NCBI RefSeq assembly: GCF_019263805.1 | Contig: NZ_CP079195.1 | Span: 3,831,001 to 3,895,000 of the forward strand | Length of the DNA: 64,000 bases | Reading direction: 5' to 3' | Source: Polaribacter sp. NJDZ03 | GTDB lineage: Bacteria; Bacteroidota; Bacteroidia; Flavobacteriales; Flavobacteriaceae | Shown here: one piece after another, positions 2,384 to 34,276 of the stretch | Position numbering within the stretch: position 1 is the stretch's first letter | How the letters are laid out: every line of letters starts with the position of its first letter | The notes under the pieces: generated by a model | Told to the model about the DNA's origin: nothing | What the model saw: the letters and a program-made list of their open reading frames with translations, nothing else | Databases searched by the model: none | Made by a program: the position numbers and the translations under genes

Positions 2384-2394
2384 AATAAATTCTC

Positions 2395-6618: not shown

Positions 6619-8874
6619 ATGAAAAAAAAACACCTAATTATTCTTTGTTCTATTTTAATGGTAAGCTGCTCTAAAAATTCAGAAACCATAAATAATACTC
6701 AAGAAAAATCTTCAATAAGCTATGTAGATCCTTTTATAGGTACTGGAGGACATGGTCATACGTATCCTGGTGCAACTGTGCCTTTTGGTATGTTGCAGGT
6801 AAGTCCGGTAAACGGTATTAGTGAGTGGGATTGGTGTTCTGGTTATCATTATTCAGACGATGTTCTGGTGGGTTTTAGCCACTTAAGTTTAAGCGGAACA
6901 GGTATTGGAGATTTGGCTGATATTATTTTTATGCCGGTAAATAAAGAAGTAGATTTAACTATAAACCCACAGTCTAGAGATAGTATTTCTTATAAATCTT
7001 CTTACAGTCATAAAAATGAGAAAGCATCTCCTGGATATTATCAAGTTTTTTTAGAAGATCATGATGTTAATGTAGAGTTAACAACCTCTAAAAGAATAGC
7101 AAATCATAAATATTCATTTAAAAAAGGAGATAAAAATTCTGTTGTCATAGATTTAGGCTTTGCTATTAATTGGGACAGACCTTTAGAAACTTCTTTAAAT
7201 ATTGAAGACGAGTTCACTATAAGTGGAACTAGATTTAGTAAAGGTTGGGCTAACAATCAAAAAGTATTTTTTGTCGCTAAATTTTCGAAGCCAATTGTCA
7301 GTCATAAGTTGTATGCTGATGGTAATCTAACAGCTGAAGAATCAGCAAAAAGCAAAAAAACATCCACACAATTATTTTTTGATACAGATGATAAAAATGA
7401 ATTGCAAGTAAAAGTAGCACTTTCATCTGTGAGTATAGAAAATGCAAAAGATAATTTAGATACTTCTGATTTTAATTTTGAAGGCGTAAAAACTTCTGCA
7501 GAGAACTCTTGGGAGAAGGCATTGTCTAGTTTTAATGTAGAAACAAAAACAGACTCTTTAAAAACTATTTTTTATACCGCATTGTATCATGCACAGCTAG
7601 CTCCTGTTACGTTTAGTGATAAAAACGGACAGTTTAGATTGGAGAATGATAGTATTGTAACTGCAGAAAATTACACTGCATATTCTACTTTATCTCTTTG
7701 GGATACTTTTAGGGCAGAACACCCTTTATTAACCTTGATTGCTCCAGATAAAGCATCGGATATGATTAACTCTATGTTGGCATATTACGAACCTAAAAAA
7801 ATATTACCAGTTTGGACTTTGTACGGAAACGAAACAAATACAATGACGGGCTATCATTCCATACCTGTAATTGTAGATGCGTATAGAAAAGGTATTCGTG
7901 GTTTTGATGAGGAAAAAGCATACGAGGCAATGAAAATTACCATGCTGCAAGACGAACGTGGCTTAAATCATTATAAAAAATACGGATATATTCCTTATAA
8001 TCTAATAGATGAATCTGTAACCATTTCTTTAGAGTATGCTTATGATGATTGGTGTGTTGCAGAAATGGCAAAAATGTTAGGAAAGGAAGATGATTATCAA
8101 TTTTTCTTAAATCGATCTAAAGCATATCAACATTTATTTGACAAAGAAAGTGGTTTCATGCGTGGGAAATCTCAAGATGGAAAATCGTGGAACGAACCTT
8201 TCGATCCAAAACATTCTAACCACAGAGAGCAGACAGATTATACTGAAGGAAATGCTTGGCAACACAGTTGGTTTGTACCTCATGCAGTAGATAATTTAAT
8301 AGAAATTCATGGTGGTAATAAAGTTTTCACAAATCGTTTAGAGCAATTATTTACAGAAAGCTCAGAAATTACTGGCGATAATGTTTCTGCAGATATTACG
8401 GGGCTTATCGGTCAATATGCACATGGTAATGAACCGAGTCACCACATTGCGTATATGTTTAATCATGCAGCACAACCTTGGCGTACTCAGTTTTGGGCAC
8501 GTACTATTATGGATACGCAATATAATACAACACCAAACGGATTGAGTGGTAATGAAGATTGTGGGCAAATGAGTGCTTGGTATGTGTTGAGTTCTATGGG
8601 AATATACCCTATGAATCCGGCTTCTGGAGAATATGAAATTGGAACTCCAATTTTTGAAAAAGCAACAATGAATCTTCCTAATGGTAAAACATTTACTATT
8701 GAAGCAGAAAATATATCTGACAAAAATTTCTATATTCAATCGGCAACTTTTAATGGCGAAGTTTTTAATAAAACGGCTATTTCACACGATGCTATTTTAA
8801 AAGGAGGGAGCTTACATTTTGTAATGGGGGCTAAACCTAATAAAAATTGGGGAGTAATAGGTAACCAACAATAA
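6619..8874 (+). CDS. GH92 alpha-mannosidase, lipoprotein
   Basis: Exo-acting, calcium-dependent, inverting alpha-mannosidase of family GH92. The lipoprotein signal ends at MVSC (Cys16). The family hallmark N-terminus YVDPFIGTGGHGHTYPGAT lies near residue 34. The general-acid region is intact (HGNEPSHH, E605), as is the catalytic-base region SGNEDCGQMSAWY (E646/D647). At 751 residues the length is standard. It is the first gene of the plus-strand run, followed 25 bases later by the SSF transporter. The NEPSHH/GNEDCGQMS signature matches the classical alpha-1,2/alpha-1,3-mannosidase type. Linkage cannot be fixed from sequence. Confidence 0.95.
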   Translation: MKKKHLIILCSILMVSCSKNSETINNTQEKSSISYVDPFIGTGGHGHTYPGATVPFGMLQVSPVNGISEWDWCSGYHYSDDVLVGFSHLSLSGTGIGDLADIIFMPVNKEVDLTINPQSRDSISYKSSYSHKNEKASPGYYQVFLEDHDVNVELTTSKRIANHKYSFKKGDKNSVVIDLGFAINWDRPLETSLNIEDEFTISGTRFSKGWANNQKVFFVAKFSKPIVSHKLYADGNLTAEESAKSKKTSTQLFFDTDDKNELQVKVALSSVSIENAKDNLDTSDFNFEGVKTSAENSWEKALSSFNVETKTDSLKTIFYTALYHAQLAPVTFSDKNGQFRLENDSIVTAENYTAYSTLSLWDTFRAEHPLLTLIAPDKASDMINSMLAYYEPKKILPVWTLYGNETNTMTGYHSIPVIVDAYRKGIRGFDEEKAYEAMKITMLQDERGLNHYKKYGYIPYNLIDESVTISLEYAYDDWCVAEMAKMLGKEDDYQFFLNRSKAYQHLFDKESGFMRGKSQDGKSWNEPFDPKHSNHREQTDYTEGNAWQHSWFVPHAVDNLIEIHGGNKVFTNRLEQLFTESSEITGDNVSADITGLIGQYAHGNEPSHHIAYMFNHAAQPWRTQFWARTIMDTQYNTTPNGLSGNEDCGQMSAWYVLSSMGIYPMNPASGEYEIGTPIFEKATMNLPNGKTFTIEAENISDKNFYIQSATFNGEVFNKTAISHDAILKGGSLHFVMGAKPNKNWGVIGNQQ

Positions 8875-8899
8875 CTAATCAACTAATAATTACCCTCTA

Positions 8900-10777
8900 A
8901 TGAATATAATAGATATTTCAATTATAGCAATTTACATTATTCTAACACTGGCTGTTGGAATTTGGATTTCAAAAAGAGCTTCTAAAGGATTAGATTCTTA
9001 TTTTTTAGGAGGTAAATCTATAAAATGGTACTATTTAGGGTTAAGTAATGGCTCTGGGATGTTCGATATTTCTGGAACAGCCTTAATGGTAGGTTGGCTT
9101 TTTCTATACGGAACAAAGAGTTTTATGTTAATGTGGCTTTGGCCCATATGGAATCAGATTTTTATTATGATGTTCCTAGCCGTTTGGATTAGGCGCTCTA
9201 ATATTATGACGGGGTCTGAATGGATTTTAACACGTTTTGGCGATGATAAAGCAGGACGAGCATCTCATAAAATTGTAGCACTGTTTGCTGTGGTTGCTGC
9301 CATTGGTTTTATTGCCTACTTTTTTGAAGGTGTAGGTAAGTTTATGACCGTTATTTTACCTTGGGATATGACTTTTATAATAGGTGCTTCAGAAATTTTA
9401 ACTTCAGAGCAATCTTATGCACTCATTATAATTATTCTAACTACTATTTATACAATAAAAGGAGGAATGTTTTCTGTAGTGGCAACAGAGGTTTTACAAT
9501 ACGGAATAATGGTTATTGCAGGTGTTTTGGTTGCAGGCTATACTTTTATTGCTTTTAGTGATATAGAAATTACAAGTGTAATTACAGAAGAGTGGAAAAA
9601 CGTTTTCTTCGGATGGGAGTTAGATACACATTGGGATTCTAAGTATCAAAAATTTAATGATTTGGTAGATTCCGAAGGGTATAAAATGTTTGGAGCTTTA
9701 ATTGGTATGAGTCTTTTTAAAGGATTCTTCGCAAGTATTGCTGGTCCAACACCAAGTTTCGATATGCAACGTATTTTATCAACAAAAACAGTAAAAGAAG
9801 CTGCTTACATGAGTGGTTTTACAAATTTGGTATTGTTTATTCCTCGCTATTTATTAATTGGAGGTGTTGTAGTTATTGCGTTGGTAGTTTTAGCTCCTCA
9901 AATGGCTGCAAATCCCAATTTTGTAGGTGGAGATTTAGAAATTTTACTACCACAAGTAATTAATTTTCACGTTCCTGTAGGTATTAAAGGATTGCTTTTA
10001 GCAGGACTTTTAGCTGCCTTTATGTCTACCTTTTCCGCATTTGTAAACGCAGGACCTGCATATATTGTTAACGATATTTATAAAAAATATTTTAAACCAG
10101 AAGCAACGGATGATCACTATATTAAAGCGAGTCATTTGGCTTCTTTTGCAGTGGTAGGATTGGGTGTTTTTATGGGCTTTTTTGCAGATTCTATTAACTC
10201 ACTAACATTATGGATTACAAGCTCTTTATTTGGTGGGTATGTAGCAGCTAATTTTTTAAAATGGATTTGGTGGAGATTTAACGGTTGGGGATACTTTTGG
10301 GGAATGTTATCTGGTTTAATTATTGCCAGTTTGCAATTTCTATTAGATCAAAATAAAGCCCATTTTACAGAAGGCTCACTTTTATATGACTTGTCTAATG
10401 TTTCTGCTATTTACTTATTCCCAGTCATATTTGGTTTTTCATTACTTGGTTCATTTTTAGGAACCTTTTTAACGAAACCTACAGATATAAAGGTTTTAAA
10501 AGCATTCTATACAAATGTACATCCTTGGGGATTTTGGAAGCCGGTATTAAAAGAATTAAAGAAAGAGAATCATAAAATTGAGAAAAATTCTGAATTTTGG
10601 TCAGATATGTTAAACTGTGCAATAGGTATTGTTTGGCAATCTAGTATGATTGTATTGCCTATCTATTTTCTAATAAGAGATTACCCGAAAGCGTTTATTT
10701 CTTTAGGCGTATTTTTGGTGACTTCTATTATTTTGAAGTTTACATGGCTAGATAAAGTGAGAAAAATTCCGAATTAA
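8900..10777 (+). CDS. Sodium:solute symporter (SSF family)
   Basis: Inner-membrane Na+-coupled solute transporter, 625 residues, with about 13-14 hydrophobic helices. The N-terminal block ([21 protein letters not shown]) is characteristic of SSF proteins, as is the [20 protein letters not shown] segment around residue 370. It sits between a GH92 and a GH130 phosphorylase, so the likely cargo is mannose or the Man-GlcNAc disaccharide that GH130 would phosphorolyse in the cytoplasm. Cargo is inferred from neighbours only. Confidence 0.92.
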
Positions 10778-10812
10778 AAATAATAAGATTGACATTAAAT
10801 AATAAAGAAAAT

Positions 10813-11778
10813 ATGAAATCAATTCCTTGGCAAGATAAACCAGAAGGTTGCAATGATGTAGTTTGGAGATATTCGGAAAACCCTGTGATAAACAGGTATG
10901 ACATTCCATCTTCTAACAGTATTTTTAATAGTGCTGTTGTTCCTTTTAAAGATGGTTTTGCAGGTGTTTTTAGATGTGATAACAAAGCAGTACAAATGAA
11001 TATTTTTGCTGGTTTTAGTAAAAACGGAATTGATTGGGATATCAATCATGAGCCAATTGAAATGGAAGCAGGAAATACCGAAATGATAGAGTCTGATTAT
11101 AAATACGACCCACGTGTGGTATTTATTGAAGATAGATACTGGATTACTTGGTGTAATGGTTATAACGGACCAACAATTGGAATTGGGTATACCTTCGATT
11201 TTAAAGAATTTTTTCAATGTGAAAATGCTTTTTTACCTTTTAATAGAAACGGTGTTTTATTTCCGCAGAAAATAAATGGTAAATATGCAATGTTAAGTCG
11301 ACCAAGTGATAATGGACATACTCCGTTTGGTGATATTTACATTAGCTACAGCCCAGATATGAAATATTGGGGAGAACATCGTTGTGTAATGAAAGCAACA
11401 CCTTTTGAAGATAGTGCGTGGCAATGTACCAAAATTGGTGCAGGTCCAATTCCTATTTTAACAGACGAAGGTTGGTTAATGATTTATCACGGAGTAATAA
11501 ATACTTGCAATGGGTTCCGTTATGCAATGGGATCTGCACTTTTAGATGAAAATGAACCAGACAAAGTTAAATACAGAACGCAACCTTATTTATTAGGACC
11601 AGCAGAATCATATGAAACTACTGGTGATGTGCCTAATGTTGTATTTCCTTGTGCAGCGTTACACGATGTAGAAGAAGATAAATTAGCTATTTATTATGGT
11701 GCTGCAGATACAGTGGTAGCAATGGCTTTTGGTAAATTGAGTGAAGTTATTCAATATACAAAAGAGCATAGTTTATAA
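10813..11778 (+). CDS. GH130 beta-1,4-mannoside phosphorylase
   Basis: Cytoplasmic phosphorylase that splits beta-1,4-mannosides with inorganic phosphate to mannose-1-phosphate; close relatives act on Man-beta-1,4-GlcNAc from the N-glycan core. I chose the ATG at 10813 ([10 protein letters not shown]) over an upstream in-frame TTG at 10789, because it has an A-rich leader and matches family N-termini; this gives 321 residues. The general-acid Asp sits in YDPRV (D99). No signal peptide is present, consistent with intracellular phosphorolysis. It lies directly after the SSF transporter. The size and motif fit the GH130_2 type (mannosyl-GlcNAc phosphorylase) better than the mannosylglucose type, but this is a recall-based judgement. 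Confidence 0.9.
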
Positions 11779-11853
11779 ATAGGCATAGGCATCAGTCTGT
11801 GTTATGAATAATGAGTGGATAATTGGCTTTAGCCAAACTTAAGAATATTAAAA

Positions 11854-12927
11854 ATGAGTTTAAAATTAAAATATTTAGCACCTTTATTTTGTTTGATTTC
11901 GATGGCATCTTATGCCCAAGAAATAAAGACCATTATACCAGAAAACTATATTGCGTATCATAGTGCTGAAGCAATTGCTATTGATGGAAATGAAAATGAT
12001 GTTTCTTGGAGTAAAGTAAACTGGTCGGATCCTTTTATAGATATTCAAGGAATAAAAAAGCCAGCCTATAAAACCCAGATTAAAATGCTGTGGGACGATA
12101 CGTATTTTTACATTTTAGCAAAAATGGAAGAGCCGCACGTTTGGGCAGATATTACAGAGCATGATGCTATTATTTTTCATAATAACGATTTTGAAGTTTT
12201 TGTTGATCCAGATGGAGATACACATAATTATTATGAAATAGAAGTAAATGCAATCAATACCATTTGGGATTTATTTATTACAAAACCCTATAGAGAACAA
12301 AATAATGTTGTTTTAAATGATTGGACTGCAACCGGAATGAAAACTGCCATTACCATTGATGGTACTTTAAATAACCCAAATGATACAGACAAAGGGTGGA
12401 CTCTTGAAATGGCAATTCCTTGGAGTGTTTATAAGAAATCTTATTTTGAGAATAATGTTCCTAAAGATCAGTTTTGGCGTGTGAATTTTTCTAGAGTAAA
12501 TTGGGATTACCAAATTACAGATGGTAAATATGAACGTAAAAAAGATGCGAACGGTAAGCATCTTTCTGAATACAATTGGGTTTGGTCTCCACAAGGAGTC
12601 ATTAATATGCACGAACCAGAAAAGTGGGGCTATGTTTATTTTTCATCCAAAGAAGTTGGTGAAAAAGACACGTTTGAAGTTTCTAATGATGAAAAAATTA
12701 AATGGGAATTGTATAAATTATACCGCGCTCAAAAACAGTATTATGAAACAAATAAAACTTGGTCAACTTCTCTTAATAAAATAGCTTCCTCTGCAATAAT
12801 TGTAGATGGAAAAACAATAAAACCAACGCTTATTAATCATCGTTTTGGTTGGACTATTTTTGTAAAGAGTCCATTTTCCAATAAATTGATGACGATAAAA
12901 GAAGATGGTACTTTTGTGAAAAAATAA
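11854..12927 (+). CDS. Secreted CBM9-like carbohydrate-binding protein
   Basis: Predicted exported protein of 357 residues with a signal peptide cleaved near SYAQ. Residues ~35-260 resemble the CBM9-like/DOMON fold, with IAIDGNENDVSWSKVNW, the FEVFVDPDGDTHNYYEIEVN core and the GWTLEMAIPW strand. Such proteins bind sugar ends and are common in flavobacterial PULs without a proven enzymatic role. The last ~90 residues form a separate small region that I cannot assign. It ends 5 bases before the GH18 gene, indicating co-translation. Confidence 0.82.
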   Translation: MSLKLKYLAPLFCLISMASYAQEIKTIIPENYIAYHSAEAIAIDGNENDVSWSKVNWSDPFIDIQGIKKPAYKTQIKMLWDDTYFYILAKMEEPHVWADITEHDAIIFHNNDFEVFVDPDGDTHNYYEIEVNAINTIWDLFITKPYREQNNVVLNDWTATGMKTAITIDGTLNNPNDTDKGWTLEMAIPWSVYKKSYFENNVPKDQFWRVNFSRVNWDYQITDGKYERKKDANGKHLSEYNWVWSPQGVINMHEPEKWGYVYFSSKEVGEKDTFEVSNDEKIKWELYKLYRAQKQYYETNKTWSTSLNKIASSAIIVDGKTIKPTLINHRFGWTIFVKSPFSNKLMTIKEDGTFVKK

Positions 12928-12932
12928 ATAAG

Positions 12933-14069
12933 ATGAAGTTTATAAAATACATATTCCTTTTGCCGTTGTTTTTTGCATGTAATAAAACTGCAGAAAAACA
13001 AAATAGTGTACCGCAAGAAAAGCAAACTGAAAATTATAAAATAATTGGTTACGCAGCAGGTTATGAAGACTATGATTTCTCTAAAATTGATGCAACTAAA
13101 TTAACACACATCAATTTTGCATTTGCAAATATTGTAGATGGTAAAGCAAAATTTGAGTTAGAGACAGATAAAGCAAAAATTGCGACGTTGATATCCTTAA
13201 AAAAACAAAATCCAACTTTAAAAGTATTGTATTCTGTTGGCGGTTGGGTTTGGTCAGATCAATTTTCTACGATGGCAGCTTTTGATAACTCTCGAATAAA
13301 GTTTGCCGAAAGTTGTGTAAACTTATTAATAGAACATGGTTTTGATGGCGTAGATTTAGATTGGGAATATCCAGGTCAACGTGGACAAGACAATCCTTTT
13401 CGTCCTTCAGATAAAGATAATTTTACCTTGCTTTTGGCAGAAATTCGAAAAGCTTTAGATGTTGAAGGAAAGAAAAATAATACCCATTATTTGTTAACCA
13501 TTGCTACTGGATCTGATGACACTTACATAGAACAAACTGATTTGGGAGAAGCACATAAATACCTCGATTTTATAAATGTAATGTGTTACGATTTTTATCA
13601 AGGTTGGTATTATCAAACGGGGCATCATGCAAATTTATATCCTTCAGAAAGAGATGCATACAATGTAAATAGCGGAGTAGATGCTATGGAAAGACATTTG
13701 GAAGCGGGTGTGCCAGCAGATAAATTAGTGATGGGGATTCCTTTTTACGGAAGACAATGGAAAAAGGTGAGTTCTACAGATGATGGGTTAAATGAGCATT
13801 CTCAAGAAGGCGGTTATATTGTGTCTTACAAAGAACTTAAAGAAAAAATTGCTAAAGGAAAATATAAAGAAATGTACGATGAATCTGCAAAAGCGTCCTA
13901 TTTATGGAGTGAAAGCGATAGTACATTTGTTTCTTGGGAAACGTCTAAAGATATTCAATTAAAAACAGCATTTATAAAGGAAAATGGTTTTGGTGGAGCG
14001 ATGTTCTGGGAATATAGTTTAGACAAAGATCAAGAGTTATTAAACACACTTTTTAAAGGATTAAAATAA
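12933..14069 (+). CDS. GH18 glycoside hydrolase (chitinase/endo-beta-GlcNAcase type), lipoprotein
   Basis: Cleaves a beta-1,4 bond between GlcNAc residues by substrate-assisted catalysis. The lipobox ends FFAC (Cys16). The catalytic DxxDxDxE motif is FDGVDLDWEYP with E145. MCYDFYQGWYY and VMGIPFYGRQW mark the barrel and the chitinase-type insertion domain. At 378 residues it is a single-domain enzyme. The insertion-domain signature looks chitinase-like, yet the locus points to cleavage of the N-glycan chitobiose core, i.e. endo-beta-N-acetylglucosaminidase activity. The sequence alone does not decide between them. Confidence 0.9.
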   Translation: MKFIKYIFLLPLFFACNKTAEKQNSVPQEKQTENYKIIGYAAGYEDYDFSKIDATKLTHINFAFANIVDGKAKFELETDKAKIATLISLKKQNPTLKVLYSVGGWVWSDQFSTMAAFDNSRIKFAESCVNLLIEHGFDGVDLDWEYPGQRGQDNPFRPSDKDNFTLLLAEIRKALDVEGKKNNTHYLLTIATGSDDTYIEQTDLGEAHKYLDFINVMCYDFYQGWYYQTGHHANLYPSERDAYNVNSGVDAMERHLEAGVPADKLVMGIPFYGRQWKKVSSTDDGLNEHSQEGGYIVSYKELKEKIAKGKYKEMYDESAKASYLWSESDSTFVSWETSKDIQLKTAFIKENGFGGAMFWEYSLDKDQELLNTLFKGLK

Positions 14070-14094
14070 TTTTAACGTATAAAAACAGGTTTTT

Positions 14095-15213
14095 ATGAAG
14101 ACAAAATTTACATTATTTGTTTGGTCTATTTTTTTAATAGTAGGCTGTAATCAATTGCAACAAGAGAAAGAAGTGAAATCTTCTGATATTTCAGCAAAGA
14201 AAGTTGATGAATTTACTTTTGGTACTTGGATAACTTCTAATAAAGAAAAAACAAATGAGGCTTATAAGTCTGAATTTAAAAAATATAAAGCTGGCGGAAT
14301 TGATGAAATTTTAATTAATACAGGAACAGATCCTAAAGAATTAGAACGTTTAGTTCCTATAGCAAAGGAAGAAGGTTTAAATGTACATGCGTGGATTATG
14401 GCTGTAAATCGTCCAGGAGATACGGTTGCATTAAAGCATCCAGAATGGTATATGGTAAGTAGAGATGGTAAATCTTGCTTTGATACAAGACCGTATGTTG
14501 GGTATTATCAATGGCTGTGTCCTACAAGAACTGAATCTAGAAATCATATTTTAGGCTTGGTAGAAGGTTTGGCAAAAGTAGAAGGAATTGAAAGTGTACA
14601 TTTAGATTATATCCGTTTTCCAGATATTTTTTTACCTATTGGATTACTTCCTAAATACGACTTAGTACAAGATACAGAAATGGCCGAATACGATTTCTGT
14701 TATTGTGATGAATGCATCAATGCTTTTGAGAAAATTCACCATAAAAACCCAAGAGAAAGTAAAAATACAGCCATTGATATGGAGTGGAAAAACTTCAGAT
14801 TAAACGCTATAAAAGCGATTGTAGATGATGCATATAAACTTGTACACAAACACAATAAAAAATTAACAGCAGCTGTATTTCCGTATCCAGAAATGGCAGA
14901 CCACATGGTACGTCAGCGTTGGGATAAATGGAATATTGATGAGGTATACCCAATGATTTATCATGGTTTTTATAATGAAGAAATAGATTGGATTGGTTAT
15001 GCTACCAAACAGAGTGTTGCTGATGTAGAATCAGAAAATATTGCAGTTAATACGGGTATTTATATTCCACCATTCACATCATCAGCAGAACTAAAACAAG
15101 CAATTATTTTAGCAAAAGAAAATGGAGCAAAAGGGGTTACCTTTTTTGATGGTCCACAGTTAACCGATGAGTACTTAAAAGTTATTAAAGAAACCAAAGA
15201 TAGTTTTAAGTAG
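14095..15213 (+). CDS. GHL10-like putative glycoside hydrolase, lipoprotein
   Basis: Lipoprotein of 372 residues (lipobox ending IVGC, Cys18) resembling the GHL10/PF02638 family of TIM-barrel hydrolase-like proteins. The segments I rely on are GLNVHAWIMAVN, then SVHLDYIRFPD (the family's LDYIRFP block with its acidic residue), a Cys pair in FCYCDECINAF, IDEVYPMIYHGFY near residue 288, and a terminal GAKGVTFFDGPQL strand. The substrate is unknown. Its position between GH18 and a sugar MFS transporter in an N-glycan locus makes it a candidate for an uncharacterised glycosidase step. Confidence 0.72.
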   Translation: MKTKFTLFVWSIFLIVGCNQLQQEKEVKSSDISAKKVDEFTFGTWITSNKEKTNEAYKSEFKKYKAGGIDEILINTGTDPKELERLVPIAKEEGLNVHAWIMAVNRPGDTVALKHPEWYMVSRDGKSCFDTRPYVGYYQWLCPTRTESRNHILGLVEGLAKVEGIESVHLDYIRFPDIFLPIGLLPKYDLVQDTEMAEYDFCYCDECINAFEKIHHKNPRESKNTAIDMEWKNFRLNAIKAIVDDAYKLVHKHNKKLTAAVFPYPEMADHMVRQRWDKWNIDEVYPMIYHGFYNEEIDWIGYATKQSVADVESENIAVNTGIYIPPFTSSAELKQAIILAKENGAKGVTFFDGPQLTDEYLKVIKETKDSFK

Positions 15214-15259
15214 AAATTAGAAAATCATTGTACGTTTTAAATAGTAAAAAAATAAAATT

Positions 15260-16573: not shown

Positions 16574-16636
16574 TTCGTTTAACTGGTTAACAAGAAGTAT
16601 TTCTACTTAAAAATAAATATTTTAGAATAAAAGTGA

Positions 16637-18883: not shown

Positions 18884-18894
18884 AAAAACAACGC

Positions 18895-22352: not shown

Positions 22353-22355
22353 AAT

Positions 22356-26173: not shown

Positions 26174-26182
26174 TATTCAATT

Positions 26183-28414
26183 ATGAATAAAGATACTTGT
26201 TTGTTAATTTTTATGATATCGTTTTTAACGTGTATTAATGCACAAGAACCTATCGATTATGTGAACCCATTTATTGGAACATCTAATTTTGGAGCAACAA
26301 ATCCTGGTGCAATTGCACCAAGAGGAATGGCAAGTGTATCGCCTTTTAATGTTGCTGGTCCTAAAAATTTACCTTTAGAAAAAGATAGCCAATGGTTGTC
26401 TACTCCTTATGTAAATGAGAATACATTTTTAACAGGATTTTCTCATGTAAATTTAAGTGGCGTTGGATGTCCAGATTTGGGTGTTATTTTAGCGATGCCT
26501 ACAACAGGAGAACTGGAAACAGATCATTTAAAATACGGAACGACTTATACAAATGAGGTTGCAAAACCTGGTTATTACAGTGTTCAACTTTCAAAATATG
26601 ATGTAAAAACCGAACTTACTGCAACCACCAGAGTTGGCGTAAGTAAATATTCATTTCCAAAAGGAAAATCGAACATCTTAATCAATTTAGGCTTGGGTTT
26701 AACCAACGAAGAAGGCGCTATGGTTAAAGTAGTATCGCCAACCGAAATAGAAGGCATGCGTAATGTGGGTTCATTTTGTTATTACAAACCAGAAGAATCA
26801 TATCCTGTTTATTTTGTTGCAAAATTTAGTAAACCAGCTGATGAATTTGGAGTTTGGAAAAAAACTAGAAAAAACGAAGGTGTAGAAGGACAATGGATGG
26901 GATATAATGGCAAAAAACGCTTTTATAAAAACTATAGAAAAGAGGTTATTGGCGATAGTATTGGAACTTATTTTACTTATAATTTTGAAAAACCAACGCA
27001 AGTAGAGGTTAAGATTGGTGTTTCTTACGTTAGTATAGAAAATGCCAGAGAAAATTTAGAAAAGGAAACGCAACATTTATCATTTGATGCTATCTATAAA
27101 AATACTGCTTCACAATGGAATCAATTATTATCTAAAGTTGAAGTAGAAGGCGGAACAAAAGATGATAAAACTATTTTTTATACAGCGTTGTACCACACAT
27201 TAATTCACCCGAATACGTTAAATGATGTGAATGGCGAATATCCAACAATGGGAAAACGCAAAACTGCAAAAACTGACGGAACACGATTTACCGTATTTTC
27301 TTTTTGGGATACCTATAGAAACCTTCATTCTTTAATGTCTTTGATCTATCCAAAACAACAATCGGATATGGTTAAAAGTATGTTGAATATTTATGATGAA
27401 AGCGGATGGTTACCTAAATGGGAACTGAATGCAACCGAAACAACCACAATGGTTGGTGATCCTGCAGGAATTATTCTAGCAGATACGTATTTAAGAGGCA
27501 TACAAGATTTTGATATTGAAAAAGCGTATGAAGCCATGCGAAAAAGCGCTACACAACTAGAAAACAACTCGTTAAGACCAGGAATTAAAGATTATATAAA
27601 GAACGGATATTTATCAACAAAAACAACCAATAGCGGTTCTGTTTCAACAACACAAGAATATAACATCAGTGATTTTGCAATCGCACAATTGGCAAATAAA
27701 TTAGGGAAGAAAAAAGATTATAAATTATTTTCTAATCGTGCTGTTTCCTATAGAAGTTTCTTTGACAAGGAATTTAATTTATTGCGTCCAAAAAATGATG
27801 ATGGTTCATGGCATTCGCCTTTTAATCCTAATCAAGGTGCTAATTTCGAAAAAAATGTCGGATTTATAGAAGGGAATTCATGGCAATATACTTTTATGGT
27901 TGCACATGATACAAAAGCCCTAATGAAGTTAATGGGAGGTAAAAAAGAATACGTTGCTAAATTAGATGAAGTTTTTGAGAAAAAACAATTTGATATGGCG
28001 AATGAACCAGATATTGCTTACCCCTATTTATACAACTATGCAAAAGGATATGAATGGAAAACACAACAACGTGTTACCAATTTAATTCATACATATTTTA
28101 CAAATAAACCGGCAGGTTTGCCTGGAAACGATGATACTGGAACCATGTCTGCTTGGTTAATTTATAGCATGATGGGAATATATCCAGTTTCTCCTGCAGA
28201 TCCTATGTACACAATTACAGCACCGACATTTGATAAAATTACCATTCATTTAGACACAAGATATTATAAGAACAAAAAAATTATAATTGAAAGAGTTGGT
28301 AATAAAGAAGCTGTTATAAAAGGAATAGAACTTAACGGAAAAAATTATAAGAGTTATTTTATTTCAAATGATGAATTTGTTAATGGTCAAAATTTAAAAA
28401 TTATTCAAAAATAA
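26183..28414 (+). CDS. GH92 alpha-mannosidase, divergent type
   Basis: Fourth GH92, 743 residues, exported (FLTCINAQ, either a signal peptidase I site or a lipobox at Cys17). YVNPFIGTSNFGATNPGAIA is the family N-terminus. The general-acid block is ANEPDIAYPYLYNY (E608) and the base block PGNDDTGTMSAW, both catalytically complete but unlike the NEPSHH/CGQMS version of the other members. This places it in a separate GH92 subgroup with likely different linkage preference. It is followed 11 bases later by GH47. Confidence 0.94.
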   Translation: MNKDTCLLIFMISFLTCINAQEPIDYVNPFIGTSNFGATNPGAIAPRGMASVSPFNVAGPKNLPLEKDSQWLSTPYVNENTFLTGFSHVNLSGVGCPDLGVILAMPTTGELETDHLKYGTTYTNEVAKPGYYSVQLSKYDVKTELTATTRVGVSKYSFPKGKSNILINLGLGLTNEEGAMVKVVSPTEIEGMRNVGSFCYYKPEESYPVYFVAKFSKPADEFGVWKKTRKNEGVEGQWMGYNGKKRFYKNYRKEVIGDSIGTYFTYNFEKPTQVEVKIGVSYVSIENARENLEKETQHLSFDAIYKNTASQWNQLLSKVEVEGGTKDDKTIFYTALYHTLIHPNTLNDVNGEYPTMGKRKTAKTDGTRFTVFSFWDTYRNLHSLMSLIYPKQQSDMVKSMLNIYDESGWLPKWELNATETTTMVGDPAGIILADTYLRGIQDFDIEKAYEAMRKSATQLENNSLRPGIKDYIKNGYLSTKTTNSGSVSTTQEYNISDFAIAQLANKLGKKKDYKLFSNRAVSYRSFFDKEFNLLRPKNDDGSWHSPFNPNQGANFEKNVGFIEGNSWQYTFMVAHDTKALMKLMGGKKEYVAKLDEVFEKKQFDMANEPDIAYPYLYNYAKGYEWKTQQRVTNLIHTYFTNKPAGLPGNDDTGTMSAWLIYSMMGIYPVSPADPMYTITAPTFDKITIHLDTRYYKNKKIIIERVGNKEAVIKGIELNGKNYKSYFISNDEFVNGQNLKIIQK

Positions 28415-28425
28415 ACTAAGTAAAA

Positions 28426-29859
28426 ATGATTAAAATCAATAAACTAATAGTTATCTGTTTTAGTGTATTCATGTTGCTTTCTTGTAAGCAAGAAGATAAA
28501 ACAAAAACCAAACAGAAAGTAAAGGATAAAGAAATTTCAATGCTCCAAGATGAAGTTAAAAAAGAAACATTACGCTCTTGGAATGCTTATAAAAAATATG
28601 CTTGGGGTCATGATGTTTTATTACCTTTATCTAAATCACACAAAGATTGGTATGAAGGTTCTTTGGGAATTTCTCCAATAGACGCTTATAGCACCTTAAA
28701 AGTAATGGGCTTAGAAAAAGAAGCTAAAGAAATTGAAGACTATGCGCTCGCAATGGATTGGGATAAAGATTTATATGTTCAAACTTTTGAGGTAAACATA
28801 AGAATTTTAGGTGGTTTATTATCAATGTATCATTACACAAAAAACGAAGCTATTTTAGCTAAAACTAAAGATTTTGGTGATAGAATTTTACCAGCATTTA
28901 ATACTCCTACAGGAATTCCTGCTCATTCAGTTAATTTAAAAACAGGCAAGTTAGCAGGTAATTTAGGAGAAGGAAAAGGTGATGTGGTTAACGTTGCACA
29001 AGCAGCCACTTATTTATTTGAGTTTGGTATTTTAAGTTATTATACAAAGGATCCTAAATACTATCAAGCTGCTAAAAAAGCAACAAAAGCTGTCTTTAAT
29101 CGCAAATCAAAAATAGGTTTGCCTGGTGAGCAAATAAACATAAATACAGGTGAATGGGTTGGTACAAAATGGCACCATCTGCAGGCTGGAGTTGATGCTT
29201 ATTATGAATATATGTATAAAAGTTGGATGATTTTTCCTGATCCTGAAATTAAAGAAATCTGGGACTTTAGTAAATCTAAAATTGATGAATATTTGTTAGA
29301 TGAATACGAGGGACATACATTCTACACTATTGTTGATATGGAAACAGGTAAAGTATTAAAACGCTCTGTATCTTTATACGATGCTTTTTTCCCTGCTATA
29401 CAAGCAATTTCTGGAGATATTTCTGCCGCAGAAAAAAATCAAAAAACTTGGGATTGGTTGTGGGATAAAAATGGACTTCTACCAACTAGATATAAATATG
29501 ATGAGGATAGAATTGAATATGCAGAATCAGAAATAAACCCAGAAATAATTGAGTCAGCATATTACCTTCATGAAATAACAGGTAAGGAAGAGTATTTGAA
29601 TATGATTAAGAAGTATTGGAAAGATATAAATAAGTATTGTAGAAATGATGTAGCCTACAATTCAATCAAAGATGTTAGAACAAAAGAGCCAAAAGATTAT
29701 TTAGCTACTTATGTTTTTGCAGAAACATTCAAATACTTTTATATAGCTTTTTCTCAAGGTGAATTTAATTTTAATGAGCACGTATTTAATACAGAAGCTC
29801 ATACCTTTAAAAAATCTGATTTTAATCAAGAAGATGCAAAAGAAAGACTGGGCTATTGA
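28426..29859 (+). CDS. GH47 alpha-1,2-mannosidase, lipoprotein
   Basis: Class I, calcium-dependent inverting alpha-1,2-mannosidase; this family is best known from ER/Golgi N-glycan processing and is uncommon in bacteria. Lipobox MLLSC (Cys20). GH47 marks in order are SWNAYKKYAWGHDVLLPLS, GISPIDAYSTLKVMGL, VNIRILGGLLSMYH, and the C-terminal ETFKYFY...FNTEAHTF, where the TEAH Thr coordinates calcium in known structures. Length 477 is the catalytic barrel only. It would remove the alpha-1,2 mannoses of high-mannose N-glycans and complement the GH92 set. Confidence 0.92.
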   Translation: MIKINKLIVICFSVFMLLSCKQEDKTKTKQKVKDKEISMLQDEVKKETLRSWNAYKKYAWGHDVLLPLSKSHKDWYEGSLGISPIDAYSTLKVMGLEKEAKEIEDYALAMDWDKDLYVQTFEVNIRILGGLLSMYHYTKNEAILAKTKDFGDRILPAFNTPTGIPAHSVNLKTGKLAGNLGEGKGDVVNVAQAATYLFEFGILSYYTKDPKYYQAAKKATKAVFNRKSKIGLPGEQININTGEWVGTKWHHLQAGVDAYYEYMYKSWMIFPDPEIKEIWDFSKSKIDEYLLDEYEGHTFYTIVDMETGKVLKRSVSLYDAFFPAIQAISGDISAAEKNQKTWDWLWDKNGLLPTRYKYDEDRIEYAESEINPEIIESAYYLHEITGKEEYLNMIKKYWKDINKYCRNDVAYNSIKDVRTKEPKDYLATYVFAETFKYFYIAFSQGEFNFNEHVFNTEAHTFKKSDFNQEDAKERLGY

Positions 29860-30202
29860 TTTTAGAATCGTAAATTACTAGAATACAAAATATTAACTTA
29901 ATATAAATTAAGTTATTGGTATAAAAATTAATTCTAATTTTCCTTTTTATTTTGCTTAAAAGGAATAGTATAAGTAGAATCAAGCTGTGCCATTTTTAGG
30001 CATCAATCTATCAACTTTAAAGGTAAAAAAGTTAGAGGTAAAGAAGTAACAAGTTTACAAGGTAGTCGCTTTAATCTATAAAAAGGGAATCGTTCTAAAG
30101 TTTAAAAAAGTAACCGATGCTACCAGTAAACTAACGTTTCGCTCTAATGTAGGTCGTTCGGCTAAATAAGGCCAATCGTAAATTAAAATTTATTAAATAA
30201 AG
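29860..30202 (+). other. Intergenic stretch with a decayed coding remnant
   Basis: No intact gene. From about 30050 to the stop at 30167-30169 a short frame reads YKKGIVLKFKKVTDATSKLT then FRSNVGRSAK, and just upstream another frame reads KVRGKEVTSLQGSRFNL, as expected for a frameshifted C-terminal end of a lost protein. I cannot name its family. It breaks the otherwise tight operon and could be scar tissue of a deleted PUL gene between GH47 and GH97. Confidence 0.4.
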
Positions 30203-32230
30203 ATGAAGATTAAAAAAACTTATATAGCATTCTTGTTAATTTTTTCATTTGTAAGCTGCTCTAGTGAAAAGGTTTTAAAAATTGAATCACCAAATAACAA
30301 AATTGGGGTATCAATACAGACGACCAGTGGTATATCTTACATGGTTAATTTTAAAGATTCTGTAATTATAAATTCCTCAAAATTAGGGTACGAATTTAAA
30401 AATGCAAATCCTTTATCTAAAAACTTTATAGTAACAGATTATAGCATTACACAATCCAACACCAAATGGACTACAGCTTGGGGAGAAAAAAGTGTAATAG
30501 AAGATAATTACAATCAACTATTAATTTGCTTACAAGAAAAAGATGGATTCAAAAGAAAACTGAATCTTTATTTTAAAGTTTACAACGACGGTATTGGGTT
30601 TCGCTATGAAATTCCTAAACAAAAAAATGTAGACAGTCTTCTAATTACACAAGAATTAACGGAATTTAATTTCGTGAAAAACCATAGTGGTTGGTATATT
30701 CCAGCAAATTTTGAATCATACGAAACACTCTATAAAAATGCATCTTTAAATGAAATTGAGTCAGCAAATACACCAATAACATTAGAAACGGAAGCTGGTA
30801 ATTTTATAAGTATTCATGAAGCGAATTTAACAAATTATGCAGGCATGACTTTAAAGAAAAATAAAGCGGCCTCATTTTCTTTTAAAAGTGATTTGGCACC
30901 GTGGCCAGATGGTGTTAAAGTAAAAGCAAAAACACCAATGGTTTCTCCTTGGCGTACCATTCAAATAACAGACAATGCAAAAGATTTAGTGGAGTCTAAT
31001 TTAATTTTGAATTTAAATGAACCAAATAAAATTGAAGATGTGTCTTGGGTTGAACCCATGAAGTATATTGGAATTTGGTGGGGAATGCACTTAGGAACAC
31101 AAACTTGGACTTTAGGTGAAAGACATGGAGCAACAACCGAAGAAACAAAGAAATACATCGATTTTGCAGACAAACATAAAATTAAAGGTGTTTTAGTTGA
31201 AGGCTGGAACACAGGTTGGGAAAATTGGGGAAAGAAGGATGCTTTCGATTTTGTAACACCTTACGACGATTTTAATTTGAAAGAAGTTACAAACTATGCA
31301 ACTGAAAAAAACATTTCATTTATTGGTCATGTTGAAACTGGTGGGGCTGCACAATCTTTTGAAAATAAATTAGAACCTATTTTTTCAATGTATCAACAAT
31401 TGGGGGTTAAAGCTGTAAAAACGGGTTACGCAGGAGGCATTCAAACAAAAGGTCAATTTCATCATGGGCAGTTTATGGTAAATCATTATAGAGAGGTTGT
31501 TAAAACTGCTACTAAATATAAAATTATGATTGATGCTCATGAGCCGATTAAACCCACAGGAATAAGAAGAACCTATCCAAATATGATGACTCGTGAAGGT
31601 GCAAGAGGTATGGAATGGAATGCTTGGAGTTCAGGGAATCCACCAGAACATTATACAATTTTGCCTTTTACAAGAGGTTTAGCAGGACCAATAGATTATA
31701 CACCTGGTGTATTTGATATTTTATATAAAAACGCTAAAAACAGAGTGAAATGGAATGATTTAGATGATGGAACTTCCAGAGTAAATACAACATTAGCAAA
31801 GCAATTAGCTTTATTTGTTGTGTTGTATAGCCCAATGCAAATGGCATCTGATTTGATAGAGAATTATGAAAATCAACCTGCTTTTAAATTTATTGAAGAT
31901 GTTGCTACAGATTGGGAGTCTTCAAAAATGATTAATGGAAAAATAGGAGATTACATAACCATTGTTAGAAAAGATAAAAATAGTGATGATTGGTTTTTAG
32001 GAAGCATTACAGATGAGAGCCAAAGAGAATTAGATATAGAGTTAAGTTTTCTTGAAGAGAATAAAACGTACATCGCTCAAATCTATGCCGATGGTATGAA
32101 TGCCGATTGGAAAACCAATCCGACAGAAATTGATATTCTAAAAAAAGAAGTGACTTCAAAAACCAATCTAACTATAAAATTAGCTGGTGGTGGTGGACAA
32201 GCTATCCGATTTTCACCAATAAATAAATAA
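30203..32230 (+). CDS. GH97 glycoside hydrolase, SusB-like inverting type, lipoprotein
   Basis: Family GH97 alpha-glycosidase, 675 residues, lipobox FVSC (Cys19). The N-terminal beta-sandwich is followed by the barrel starting YIGIWWGMHLG. The central VKAVKTGYAGG, IMIDAHEPIKPTGIRRTYPN and GARGMEWNAW blocks follow the SusB (inverting alpha-glucosidase) pattern, which uses glutamates as base, and not the retaining alpha-galactosidase pattern with a nucleophile Asp. The substrate could be glucose caps on immature high-mannose N-glycans or unrelated alpha-glucans. It is followed 5 bases later by the broken phosphatase-family gene. Confidence 0.9.
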   Translation: MKIKKTYIAFLLIFSFVSCSSEKVLKIESPNNKIGVSIQTTSGISYMVNFKDSVIINSSKLGYEFKNANPLSKNFIVTDYSITQSNTKWTTAWGEKSVIEDNYNQLLICLQEKDGFKRKLNLYFKVYNDGIGFRYEIPKQKNVDSLLITQELTEFNFVKNHSGWYIPANFESYETLYKNASLNEIESANTPITLETEAGNFISIHEANLTNYAGMTLKKNKAASFSFKSDLAPWPDGVKVKAKTPMVSPWRTIQITDNAKDLVESNLILNLNEPNKIEDVSWVEPMKYIGIWWGMHLGTQTWTLGERHGATTEETKKYIDFADKHKIKGVLVEGWNTGWENWGKKDAFDFVTPYDDFNLKEVTNYATEKNISFIGHVETGGAAQSFENKLEPIFSMYQQLGVKAVKTGYAGGIQTKGQFHHGQFMVNHYREVVKTATKYKIMIDAHEPIKPTGIRRTYPNMMTREGARGMEWNAWSSGNPPEHYTILPFTRGLAGPIDYTPGVFDILYKNAKNRVKWNDLDDGTSRVNTTLAKQLALFVVLYSPMQMASDLIENYENQPAFKFIEDVATDWESSKMINGKIGDYITIVRKDKNSDDWFLGSITDESQRELDIELSFLEENKTYIAQIYADGMNADWKTNPTEIDILKKEVTSKTNLTIKLAGGGGQAIRFSPINK

Positions 32231-32235
32231 ATAAT

Positions 32236-33077
32236 ATGAAAAAAACGGTTATTTTACTTTTAGTCTGTTTTTTATTTTCTTGTACTTCGGAAAAAGAAGC
32301 CTATAAAATAATGACCTATAATATTAGGTATGATAACCCGAACGATGGTGTAAACAGATGGTCCAATAGAAAAGATTTTTTAAGTAATCAAATAGTGTAT
32401 AATAGTCCAGACGTTTTTGGTATACAAGAAGGCTTGGAGCATCAAGTACAGTATTTAGATAGTATTTGGTAGGTTATTCTTATGTAGGAGTTGGACGAGA
32501 TGATGGTAAAACCAAAGGTGAGTACAGTGCTATTTTTTATCAGAAAGAAAAATTTAATGTCCTAAATAAAGGTACATTTTGGTTGTCTGAAACACCAAAT
32601 AAAATTTCGGTTGGTTGGGATGCTTCTATGGAGCGAATTTGTACGTTCGCTCTTTTAATTAATAAGTCTAATAATGATCAGTTTTGGGTTTTTAATACGC
32701 ATTTTGATCATATTGGTAACATAGCGAGAGTAAAAAGTGCTAAATTAATCATTGATAAAATAGCCGAATTTAACACAGATAATTTACCTGTTCTTGTAAT
32801 GGGAGATTTTAACTTGAAACCAGAAACAGCACCCATTCAATTATTATCCAATGCCTTTAATGATGCTAAGATAGCAAGTGAATCACAACCTTTTGGGCCT
32901 ATCGGAACCTTTAATGCTTTTGATTTTAACAAACCAGTTGTAGATAGAATAGATTATATTTTTACAAGTAAAGAACAGGTTAAAGTATTAGAATATGCAA
33001 CTTTAAGTGATTCTAAAGATGGTAAATTTCCGTCAGATCACCTACCTGTTGTTATTAAGTATACATTACATAAATAA
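32236..33077 (+). pseudogene. Endonuclease/exonuclease/phosphatase-family lipoprotein, frameshifted
   Basis: Two overlapping frames form one protein. Codons 1-78 (32236-32472) give a lipobox FLFSC, the family start YKIMTYNIRYDNPNDG and the EGLEHQ metal-binding block. The frame from 32466 continues with YSYVGVGRDDGKTKGEYSAI, MGDFNLKP and SDHLPV to 33077. Adding one T to the TTT run at 32465-32467 would join them as DSILVGYSYVG. It may be a true inactivating mutation or a homopolymer sequencing error. Intact members are metal-dependent phosphodiesterases/phosphatases; in this PUL a sugar-phosphate substrate is plausible but unproven. Confidence 0.85.
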
Positions 33078-33094
33078 TAATTAATTAGAATAAA

Positions 33095-34276
33095 ATGAAG
33101 TTTAAAAATAGTATAACAATCGGTTTATTAGTGCTTTGTGTTAATTTGTTTGCGCAAGAAAATATTACTAAAATTAATGTATTTAATAAACAAGTTTTAA
33201 ATTTTGGTGGCGAAAAAGGTACAGACTCAGAGGCAGTAAGCTTAATGAGCGGAAGATTGGTGTATAAAAAAGTAAGCATTCCAGAGTTTAAAAAAGGAAC
33301 AGACGTAAAAATAAAAATAACTGTACGCTCAAATGGTGATCGTTGGGATAAATCTGGTTCTTGTTTTGTAGTAAGTGATCCAAAAAAACTATCTATACTT
33401 TCTGTTACAGAAAAAAAGAATGATTTTCCAAAAGATTCTTATATCGATGGTAAATATGCCGGTTTTGTAAAAGGAACAAATTACAATCCTGTTGTAGAAC
33501 TAATGCGATTTATGACTCCTTTTGGAGTAGGGTATTACAGCGATAATAAAGTAAAATATAGAAGACCAGTATACATACCAAGTTGGGAAAAACAAGTAGT
33601 TTGGGAAAATGACATTACAGATTTAGAGAGTTTAGTAACAGGTACATTTTACGTTGGTGTTTGGATTGATACTTGGACAGCAGAAGGATATGAATTTGAC
33701 TTAGAACTAACGTACTCTAATAGAAAACAGCAAAAAGTATCTGTATTGCCTTTGGTGAATACAATACCTTATGTAGGCGGACAGCAAATACCAGACAATT
33801 TCGCTCATAATAATTTAGAGCAGTCTATACATTTAAAAAAGAATGCAAAAAATGTAAAATTACATTATATTACAACAGGTCATGGAGGGCATAGTGGTGG
33901 TGATGAATTTATCAAAATTAAGAATAGTGTGTTTTTTAACAACAAATTGGTTTTAGATACCATTCCTTGGAGAGATGATTGTGCTTCATTTAGAAGATTT
34001 AACCCTACTTCTGGCGTTTGGATTAGAAAAGATTCTGCATCTTATATAGATTCTAAAACTCATTCTTATCAAGTTAAAGAAATTGAAGAACGTATTGCTT
34101 CATCAGATTTATCTAGATCTAATTGGTGTCCAGGCTCTTTTGTAAAGCCTATGGTTGTTAATTTAGGAGATTTAAAAGCGGGAGATCACACATTAAAAAT
34201 AAAAATTGCTGCTACACCAGTAGACGGAGATAAATTAAATCATTGGTTAGTTTCTGCATATTTAACATACGAATAA
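33095..34276 (+). CDS. PNGase F-like peptide-N4-(N-acetyl-beta-glucosaminyl)asparagine amidase
   Basis: Secreted amidase that releases whole N-glycans from Asn side chains. Signal peptide ending LFAQ (~residue 20). The two jelly-roll domains align by eye with Elizabethkingia PNGase F: GDRWDKSG (W84-D85 = catalytic W59-D60), MRFMTPFGVG, DITDLESLVTG, then WIDTWTAEGYEF, GGDEFIKIKNSVFFNN (E271 = E206) and SNWCPGSFVKP. The position of PNGase F E118 is Asp here (D192). Length 393 exceeds the 314-residue mature reference, partly through an insertion around residues 94-130. It is the last gene of the run and is followed by a terminator. Confidence 0.9.
   Translation: MKFKNSITIGLLVLCVNLFAQENITKINVFNKQVLNFGGEKGTDSEAVSLMSGRLVYKKVSIPEFKKGTDVKIKITVRSNGDRWDKSGSCFVVSDPKKLSILSVTEKKNDFPKDSYIDGKYAGFVKGTNYNPVVELMRFMTPFGVGYYSDNKVKYRRPVYIPSWEKQVVWENDITDLESLVTGTFYVGVWIDTWTAEGYEFDLELTYSNRKQQKVSVLPLVNTIPYVGGQQIPDNFAHNNLEQSIHLKKNAKNVKLHYITTGHGGHSGGDEFIKIKNSVFFNNKLVLDTIPWRDDCASFRRFNPTSGVWIRKDSASYIDSKTHSYQVKEIEERIASSDLSRSNWCPGSFVKPMVVNLGDLKAGDHTLKIKIAATPVDGDKLNHWLVSAYLTYE

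What the first reader, a model, noticed from the sequence alone, without database searches (positions are those of the whole stretch)
6619..34276. Near-complete single-operon N-glycan degradation pathway
One strand carries glycan-release enzymes (PNGase F-like, GH18, glycosylasparaginase), trimming enzymes (four GH92, GH47, GH20, GH29, GH97), a core-disaccharide phosphorylase (GH130) and two sugar transporters, next to SusCD. This covers most bonds of a fucosylated high-mannose N-glycan including GlcNAc-Asn. Co-location of PNGase, glycosylasparaginase and the eukaryote-like GH47 in one PUL is unusual to my knowledge. Gene identities are from visible motifs; the pathway is inference.
Basis: partly seen in the sequence, partly recalled or inferred. 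Interest (0 to 1): 0.75.

Follow-up and report, generated by a model that had tools for sequence, protein, structure and literature searches.

The report
Bacterial gene cluster that eats N-glycans
A bacterium related to Tenacibaculum carries, in one stretch of DNA, genes that look like nearly all the enzymes needed to strip and eat the sugar trees (N-glycans) on other organisms' proteins; related bacteria carry similar clusters, which often also hold an enzyme of unknown job that may be a new kind of N-glycan cutter.

Summary
At 6619-34276 (+) lie four GH92, SSF and MFS transporters, GH130, GH18, glycosylasparaginase (AGA), GH20, GH29, GH47, GH97 and a PNGase F-family protein. Best reading: an N-glycan utilisation locus with periplasmic de-glycosylation and cytoplasmic phosphorolysis of the Man-GlcNAc core. 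It is not peculiar to this genome: the same gene order, with losses, recurs in other Flavobacteriaceae, and PNGase and AGA lie within 30 kb in 10 of 16 own-family PNGase genomes tested. GH47 is the unusual part, absent from the same operon in G479; PNGase+AGA+GH47 together also occurs in a Fulvivirga MAG. The conserved SusCD partner lies outside the window; the pair inside is nearest to one beside GH47 in Draconibacterium. New here: GHL10 orthologues sit within 10 kb of GH130, same strand, at 35 of 47 places, its paralogues at 0 of 22, and three loci keep GHL10 with no recognised endo-glycosidase. GHL10 is a candidate new chitobiose-core cleaving enzyme; this is untested.

The parts
2..4005 (+). 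SusC (5' end outside window) and SusD (PF12741); an extra pair, not the conserved partner of the locus; nearest pair among loci held is beside GH92-GH47-GH92 in Draconibacterium L084 (48/48%, next best 34/29%)
   Evidence: the conserved pair is L004:3204-8259; terminator-like hairpin at 4472-4491
4553..5263 (-). LytTR response regulator, divergent from the operon
   Evidence: at the same place in G479, G494, G109 and G547, G773, G281, G640, G645, G662
5309..6364 (-). LytS-type histidine kinase (PF06580)
   Evidence: conserved with the LytTR gene
6619..8874 (+). GH92 (a), lipoprotein-like; lacks the alpha-1,2 residue set of BT3990
8900..10777 (+). SSF sodium:solute symporter, proposed importer of the Man-GlcNAc core
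   Evidence: next to GH130 in 11 of 13 regions read, not in G399 or G520
10789..11778 (+). GH130 mannoside phosphorylase, no export signal seen; closest to Uhgb_MP (4udg, 505 bits); Asp107 at the place of its catalytic Asp104
11854..12927 (+). CBM9-like exported protein, next after GH130 in 11 of 13 regions read; proposed periplasmic glycan-binding protein
12933..14069 (+). GH18 lipoprotein with DxxDxDxE (FDGVDLDWE); chitinase-type
14095..15213 (+). GHL10/DUF4015 lipoprotein (PF02638, the family of Cwp19; DigH by recall); candidate chitobiose-core hydrolase
15260..16573 (+). MFS transporter (FucP/GluP/NagP type), proposed importer of released GlcNAc, mannose or fucose
16637..18883 (+). GH92 (b), closest solved relative 6f8z (BT3130, described as alpha-1,3)
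18895..19914 (+). Glycosylasparaginase (AGA); twin-Arg and lipobox-like start; mature beta chain would begin at Thr193
20022..22352 (+). GH20 beta-N-acetylhexosaminidase
22356..23705 (+). GH29 alpha-L-fucosidase
23846..26173 (+). GH92 (c), 61% identical to BT3990 with its Trp88 and His584-Glu585: predicted alpha-1,2-mannosidase
26183..28414 (+). GH92 (d), shortest of the four in the loop that holds His584-Glu585 in BT3990; linkage not predicted
28426..29859 (+). GH47 alpha-mannosidase, lipoprotein-like; E122, D257, E373 and T456 invariant
30203..32230 (+). GH97, closest to alpha-glucosidase 5hq4
32236..33077 (+). Endonuclease/exonuclease/phosphatase-family gene, split over two frames here
33095..34276 (+). 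PNGase F-family amidase, about 390 aa type, closest to 4qhb and 3ks7; type I-like signal
34305..34348 (+). terminator-like hairpin after PNGase (weak evidence)

Best explanation
A polysaccharide-utilisation-type locus for N-glycoproteins. Proposed course (inferred from homology and conservation, no assay): GH47 and some GH92, lipoproteins that may face outward, trim mannose; SusCD imports glycopeptides; in the periplasm PNGase cuts whole glycans off peptides, while GH18 and/or GHL10 cut the GlcNAc-GlcNAc bond, leaving GlcNAc-Asn for AGA; GH29 removes core fucose first; GH92c (alpha-1,2), GH92a, b and d (other linkages) and perhaps GH97 (alpha-glucose caps) trim down to Man-beta-1,4-GlcNAc; the SSF symporter imports it and GH130 splits it with phosphate into mannose-1-phosphate and GlcNAc; the MFS transporter takes up released monosaccharide. 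GH20 clears GlcNAc. The HK/LytTR pair is the likely local regulator. The locus is a shared Flavobacteriaceae system; GH47, perhaps with the SusCD pair inside the window, looks like an addition in this genome.
For: Gene identities by profile and solved relatives. AGA matches the Elizabethkingia enzyme over residues 41-334, the solved beta chain starting at Thr193. GH130 is closest to Uhgb_MP, which acts on the N-glycan core (PMC8950772, passages). GH92c carries the alpha-1,2 residues. PNGase has a type I-like signal, as predicted for two Bacteroides PNGases argued to be periplasmic (PMC9522356, passages). Gene order conserved in G479, G494, G547 and, with losses, G773, G645, G662, G640, G281. 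G479 has the operon at 87-100% without GH47. The inner SusCD is nearest to a pair beside GH47.
Against: No expression or enzyme data. GH18 looks like a chitinase, and GH20 is also a chitin enzyme. Localisation rests on reading signal motifs by eye; GH92d is ambiguous and the script's pattern was loose. GH97 and the EEP gene have no defined role here. No GH38 or GH125 alpha-mannosidase was found among the 40 of 48 ORFs scanned, so the alpha-1,6 step must fall to a GH92. The 343 bp before GH97 could hold a second promoter. GH47 absence in relatives could also be parallel loss.
Confidence: 0.82

Rival explanations
1. The locus serves mixed fungal or algal cell-wall breakdown: chitin (GH18, GH20, GHL10) and alpha-mannan (GH92, GH47), with PNGase and AGA as helpers.
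For: GH18 is closest to chitinases; GH92 enzymes also act in yeast mannan use (PMC10167667, passages).
Against: No GH76 endo-mannanase among the 40 of 48 window ORFs scanned (the rest of the genome was not searched for it). GH130 is nearest the N-glycan-core type. GH130 and AGA recur together in many genomes, with PNGase in part of them.
Confidence: 0.1
2. GHL10 has nothing to do with the chitobiose core: GH130 takes Man-GlcNAc2 directly and GHL10 removes another decoration or acts on the cell wall.
For: Uhgb_MP is described as a mannosyl-chitobiose phosphorylase. GHL10 member Cwp19 and, by recall of its family, DigH act on peptidoglycan. One GHL10 locus without GH18, G773, has a DUF4838 gene, a domain that by recall marks the GH163 endo-glycosidases, so there GHL10 is not needed for the cut. 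G138 and G109 loci do without GHL10.
Against: Linkage of this GHL10 clade, and not its paralogues, to GH130 and AGA (35 and 29 of 47 against 0 and 0 of 22); G645 and G662 have PNGase and AGA but no recognised endo-glycosidase among the operon ORFs, and G281 has AGA with neither GH18 nor PNGase.
Confidence: 0.52
3. GH47 is an insertion of little use to the pathway, since GH92c already cuts alpha-1,2-mannose.
For: Absent from the same operon in G479 and G494 and apparently redundant with GH92c.
Against: E122, D257, E373 and T456 intact; GH92d-GH47 adjacency recurs in Maribacter L021 and L023 and in Alteromonas L029, 3 of 76 GH47 loci, so the pair is kept together in some lineages.
Confidence: 0.2

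Closest known systems
High-mannose N-glycan PUL of Bacteroides thetaiotaomicron (gene numbers BT3983-BT3994 recalled; PMC7021837 and PMC11180146 seen only as search listings with the start of the abstract)
   Same: SusCD, GH18, GH92 and N-glycan substrate
   Different: There a surface endo-beta-N-acetylglucosaminidase starts the process; here PNGase, AGA, GH47, GH29, GH20, GH130 with a symporter and GHL10 sit in the same locus
Plant N-glycan enzymes of Bacteroides massiliensis (PMC9522356, passages)
   Same: PNGase with predicted type I signal next to a GH92; other CAZymes for the antennae
   Different: Set found by genome association; the words asparaginase and GH47 do not occur in the text
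PNGaseRz operon of Runella zeae (PMC12381499, passages)
   Same: PNGase, fucosidases, mannosidase, GH18 and an asparaginase together
   Different: GH47, GH130 and GHL10 not named in the passages seen; PNGaseRz selects core alpha-1,3-fucose and has an accessory module
Gpd complex, PUL5 of Capnocytophaga canimorsus (PMC3128124, passages)
   Same: N-glycan foraging with SusCD and a surface endo-glycosidase carrying a chitinase motif (FDGFDIDWE)
   Different: Five genes; the words PNGase and GH92 do not occur in the text
Cwp19 and DigH (GHL10; PMC5765458, PMC6016235, PMC12288456, passages; DigH's place in GHL10 recalled)
   Same: TIM-barrel domain; best fold match of the GHL10 model is Cwp19 (E 2.3e-11, TM-score 0.54); W-x4-R and D-Y of Cwp19's proposed active site fit by spacing
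   Different: Those act on peptidoglycan; this clade lies in N-glycan loci

Membership tests
Polysaccharide utilisation locus (PUL) for N-glycans | SusC/SusD pair with linked CAZymes and a regulator | tested here: met
   conserved SusCD just outside the window
Polysaccharide utilisation locus (PUL) for N-glycans | co-induction by the glycan | not testable with these tools
   needs RNA data
PNGase F superfamily | N- and C-terminal N-glycanase domains | tested here: met
   match over residues 47-393 to 4qhb and 3ks7
PNGase F superfamily | amidase activity on N-glycopeptides | not testable with these tools
   no assay
Glycosylasparaginase | Asparaginase_2 fold with autocleavage Thr, closest to AGA rather than isoaspartyl peptidase | tested here: met
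   413 bits to Elizabethkingia-type AGA (3ljq) against 118 to isoaspartyl peptidase; beta chain starts at query 193; organism of 3ljq recalled
GH47 | family profile and catalytic carboxylates plus Ca-binding Thr | tested here: met
   roles of the residues recalled
GH18 endo-beta-N-acetylglucosaminidase acting on N-glycans | DxxDxDxE motif | tested here: met
   FDGVDLDWE; shared by chitinases, so not decisive
GH18 endo-beta-N-acetylglucosaminidase acting on N-glycans | closer to known N-glycan endo-glycosidases than to chitinases | tested here: inconclusive
   the 60 shown of 142 PDB hits are mostly chitinases; ChiD 151 against Endo H 19 bits, both below cut-off; no phylogeny was made
GH130 N-glycan-core phosphorylase (Uhgb_MP type) | closest to Uhgb_MP, catalytic Asp present | tested here: met
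GHL10 | PF02638 match and TIM-barrel model | tested here: met
   (40.7 bits, cut-off 27.9); model mean pLDDT only 66.6, fold match to Cwp19; no sequence match in the PDB below E 0.17
GHL10 as chitobiose-core hydrolase | cleavage of GlcNAc-GlcNAc in an N-glycan core | not testable with these tools
   no assay

The most novel reading that the evidence does not exclude
The GHL10 clade in these loci is a previously unrecognised family of N-glycan core enzymes that cleaves the GlcNAc-beta-1,4-GlcNAc bond (an endo-glycosidase or chitobiase), supplying GlcNAc-Asn to AGA and Man-GlcNAc to the SSF symporter and GH130. It can stand in for GH18: it is present where no recognised endo-glycosidase was found in the region read (G645, G662, G281).
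Probability: 0.31. Interest if true: 0.66.

Novelty: new variant of a known kind. Interest (0 to 1): 0.45.

Why it matters
If right, Flavobacteriaceae of many genera share a compact locus that takes N-glycoproteins apart down to asparagine (or aspartate), GlcNAc and mannose-1-phosphate, which would matter for how protein-bound sugar is recycled. The conserved set names two uncharacterised proteins (GHL10 and the CBM9-like protein) that can be tested directly. A review lists GH18, GH85 and PNGases as the families that release N-glycans (PMC10154615, passages), to which GH163 must be added by recall; a GHL10 enzyme of that kind would add a family and a glycobiology tool.

Tried and rejected
Promoter scans gave nothing above shuffles (78 found, 81 expected; 62 found, 86 expected; Bacteroidota-type pattern 4 found, 2.8 expected). 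The GHL10 profile found no solved relative by sequence (best E 0.17). The CBM9-like model (mean pLDDT 73) finds CBM9 modules first; its C-terminal part stays unexplained. Exact contig-length coincidence between GHL10 and CBM9 hits (16 shared lengths, 0-2 when lengths were shifted) is supportive but crude. Horizontal transfer: SSF, GH130 and MFS are 90-91% identical to G138 while GyrB is 78.6%, but the other shared genes are 67-84%, and PNGase of 80% or more is in 4 of 97 genomes of the genus, own included; suggestive, no tree was made.
Full report
WHAT IS THERE. The window is G000:C1:3831001-3895000 of a one-contig 4.08 Mb genome. Order on the + strand: GH92a, SSF, GH130, CBM9-like, GH18, GHL10, MFS, GH92b, AGA, GH20, GH29, GH92c, GH92d, GH47, GH97, EEP (broken), PNGase.

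ENZYME DETAIL. PNGase: match over residues 47-393 to 4qhb and 3ks7 (398 and 390 bits), weaker to 7zgn and PNGF-II (236 and 219) and to PNGase F itself (24). AGA: 413 bits to the best glycosylasparaginase chain; the solved beta chain aligns from Thr193. GH130: 505 bits to Uhgb_MP, Asp107 at the place of its catalytic Asp104. GH47: E122, D257, E373 and T456 align with the human ER mannosidase motifs and are invariant in an alignment of 16 sequences, own included (catalytic roles recalled). GH92c has Trp and His-Glu at the positions that make BT3990 alpha-1,2-specific; GH92a, b and d do not. GH97 is nearest an alpha-glucosidase. GH18 is chitinase-type.

LOCALISATION (read by eye; the script pattern was loose and also hit PNGase and CBM9). 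Lipobox-like starts: GH92a-c, GH18, GHL10, AGA (with twin Arg), GH20, GH47, GH97. Type I-like: PNGase, GH29, CBM9-like. Ambiguous: GH92d. None: GH130. This fits import of glycopeptides and de-glycosylation in the periplasm, as suggested for two Bacteroides PNGases (PMC9522356, passages).

HOW COMMON. In 395 genomes of the order, PNGase_N matched 71 (69 over cut-off) and GH47 matched 3 strongly and 3 weakly; only G000 has both strong. Of the 71 PNGase genomes I gave 60 to an AGA search (11 with weak PNGase hits left out); reading the coordinates by eye, PNGase and AGA lie within 30 kb in 10 of 60: G000, G138, G276, G385, G002, G231, G358, G143, G362, G216, all in the own family (10 of its 16; 0 of 44 elsewhere). 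A named-genome scan with GH47 gave 76 loci. In their held flanks (up to 10 kb, many cut by contig ends) PNGase lies in 3 of 76 (L021, L023, L025) and AGA in 1 (L059, other strand). I gave 50 of the 76 to whole-genome AGA and PNGase searches; 49 were held. GH47 and PNGase lie within 30 kb in 4 of 49 (L020, L021, L023, L025; L020 assumes contig C2 is its contig), and all three genes together in 1 of 49, Fulvivirga PL25a_bin.63 (G399: GH47, PNGase and AGA on one strand within about 20 kb).

CONSERVED LOCUS. G479 has the operon at 87-100% identity in the same order with one extra GH29-like gene (30%) and no GH47; G494 has it without AGA and GH47; G547 has it in order without GH47, GH97 and EEP; G773, G645, G662, G640 and G281 have forms with more losses. 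G520 has only GH20, GH29 and PNGase of it in the region read. G645 has the shortest full form seen: GH92a, SSF, GH130, CBM9-like, GHL10, AGA, GH20, GH92d, PNGase. The HK/LytTR pair stands divergent from GH92a in 9 of the 12 Flavobacteriaceae relatives read (not seen in G138 and G520; the G276 contig ends inside GH92a). The SusCD upstream of the window is 98/96% identical to that of G479, 82/85% to G494, 59/59% to G109. The pair inside the window matches in those regions at 35% or less, apart from short pieces (46% over about 60 residues in G479, 39% in G520). Among all loci held, its best match is the pair of Draconibacterium L084 (48/48%; next 34/29%), where GH92, GH47 and GH92 follow directly. 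GH92d stands directly before GH47 here and in 3 of 76 GH47 loci (L021, L023, L029). So GH47 looks like an addition, perhaps with its own importer, and GH92d is 87% to G479 where most neighbours are 94-100%; parallel loss of GH47 in the relatives is not excluded.

GHL10. Of 299 family genomes, 68 have a match at E 1e-40. Places with at least 50% identity: 47 in 46 genomes. GH130 lies within 10 kb on the same strand at 35 of 47; AGA (59% or more; lower hits left out) at 29 of 47; the 22 places below 50% identity give 0 and 0, though 5 of those 22 genomes have GH130 elsewhere. In 22 of the 35 the gap is about 1.1-1.4 kb, the size of one CBM9 gene. Against: of the 46 genomes 8 have no GH130 hit and 3 have it elsewhere or 29 kb off, and a second GHL10 place in G276 is unlinked. 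PNGase lies within 30 kb of GHL10 in 16 of 46 genomes. By tblastn with the window's GH18, in the regions read: GHL10 without GH18 in G773, G281, G645, G662; both in the window, G479, G494, G547, G640; GH18 without GHL10 in G138; GH18 diverged to 43% with GHL10 in G276, to 31% without in G109. A check of unassigned ORFs showed that the G773 locus holds a DUF4838 protein (by recall the GH163 endo-glycosidase domain) and G281 a GH2 beta-galactosidase; the operon ORFs of at least 150 aa in G645 and G662 are all accounted for without an endo-glycosidase. The fold model (pLDDT 66.6) matches Cwp19 best, at a modest TM-score of 0.54; Cwp19 is a GHL10 enzyme reported to cut peptidoglycan strands (PMC6016235, passages), and DigH, a relative by recall, degrades denuded peptidoglycan glycans (PMC12288456, passages). 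Residues W45, W140, R145, D171, Y172 fit by spacing the active-site residues proposed for Cwp19 and are invariant in 26 sequences; I did not see a residue-level structural alignment.

WHY GHL10 MAY CUT THE CHITOBIOSE CORE. AGA acts on GlcNAc-Asn (recalled), which arises when something cuts GlcNAc-GlcNAc. G281 has AGA, no PNGase in the genome and no GH18 in the region read; G645 and G662 have AGA and PNGase but no recognised endo-glycosidase in the operon. The counter-case is real: Uhgb_MP is described as acting on mannosyl-chitobiose, so no cut is needed before uptake; AGA may take longer glycan-Asn (recalled); and an endo-glycosidase may lie elsewhere in those genomes, which I did not search.

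IN PRINT. Literature searches: (listings and starts of abstracts); passages of ten papers. No paper held at least two of GHL10, N-glycan, UPF0748 and YngK. None of the passages I read describes GH47 with PNGase and AGA; that is a limit of what I saw, not proof of absence.

Noticed in passing
4553-6364 (-): A LytTR/LytS two-component pair stands divergent from this locus here and in 9 relatives; as a PUL regulator it would differ from the hybrid two-component, SusR and sigma/anti-sigma types I recall.
   Followed up: partly
32236-33077: EEP-family lipoprotein gene in two overlapping frames here, one frame in G479, G494 and G773; beside GH97 in all four.
   Followed up: partly
35550-40470: Type I restriction-modification genes; the HsdM N-terminal and methylase parts are separated by an ISL3 transposase on the other strand; an IS1595 transposase follows at 40594-41496.
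   Followed up: no
41569-47187: P450, 2Fe-2S ferredoxin (44740-45048), ferredoxin reductase-like, Zn alcohol dehydrogenase, esterase and a divergent AraC regulator next to SusCD; recalls the sugar O-demethylation clusters of agar or porphyran users (recalled, not tested).
   Followed up: partly
L004:284-1312: Phage-type integrase upstream of the conserved SusCD.
   Followed up: no
L061:10001-17168: Two GH47 copies about 5 kb apart in a Bacteroidales MAG.
   Followed up: no
L125:4187-6418: DUF4838 protein with an F5/8 type C domain inside the related locus of G773.
   Followed up: no
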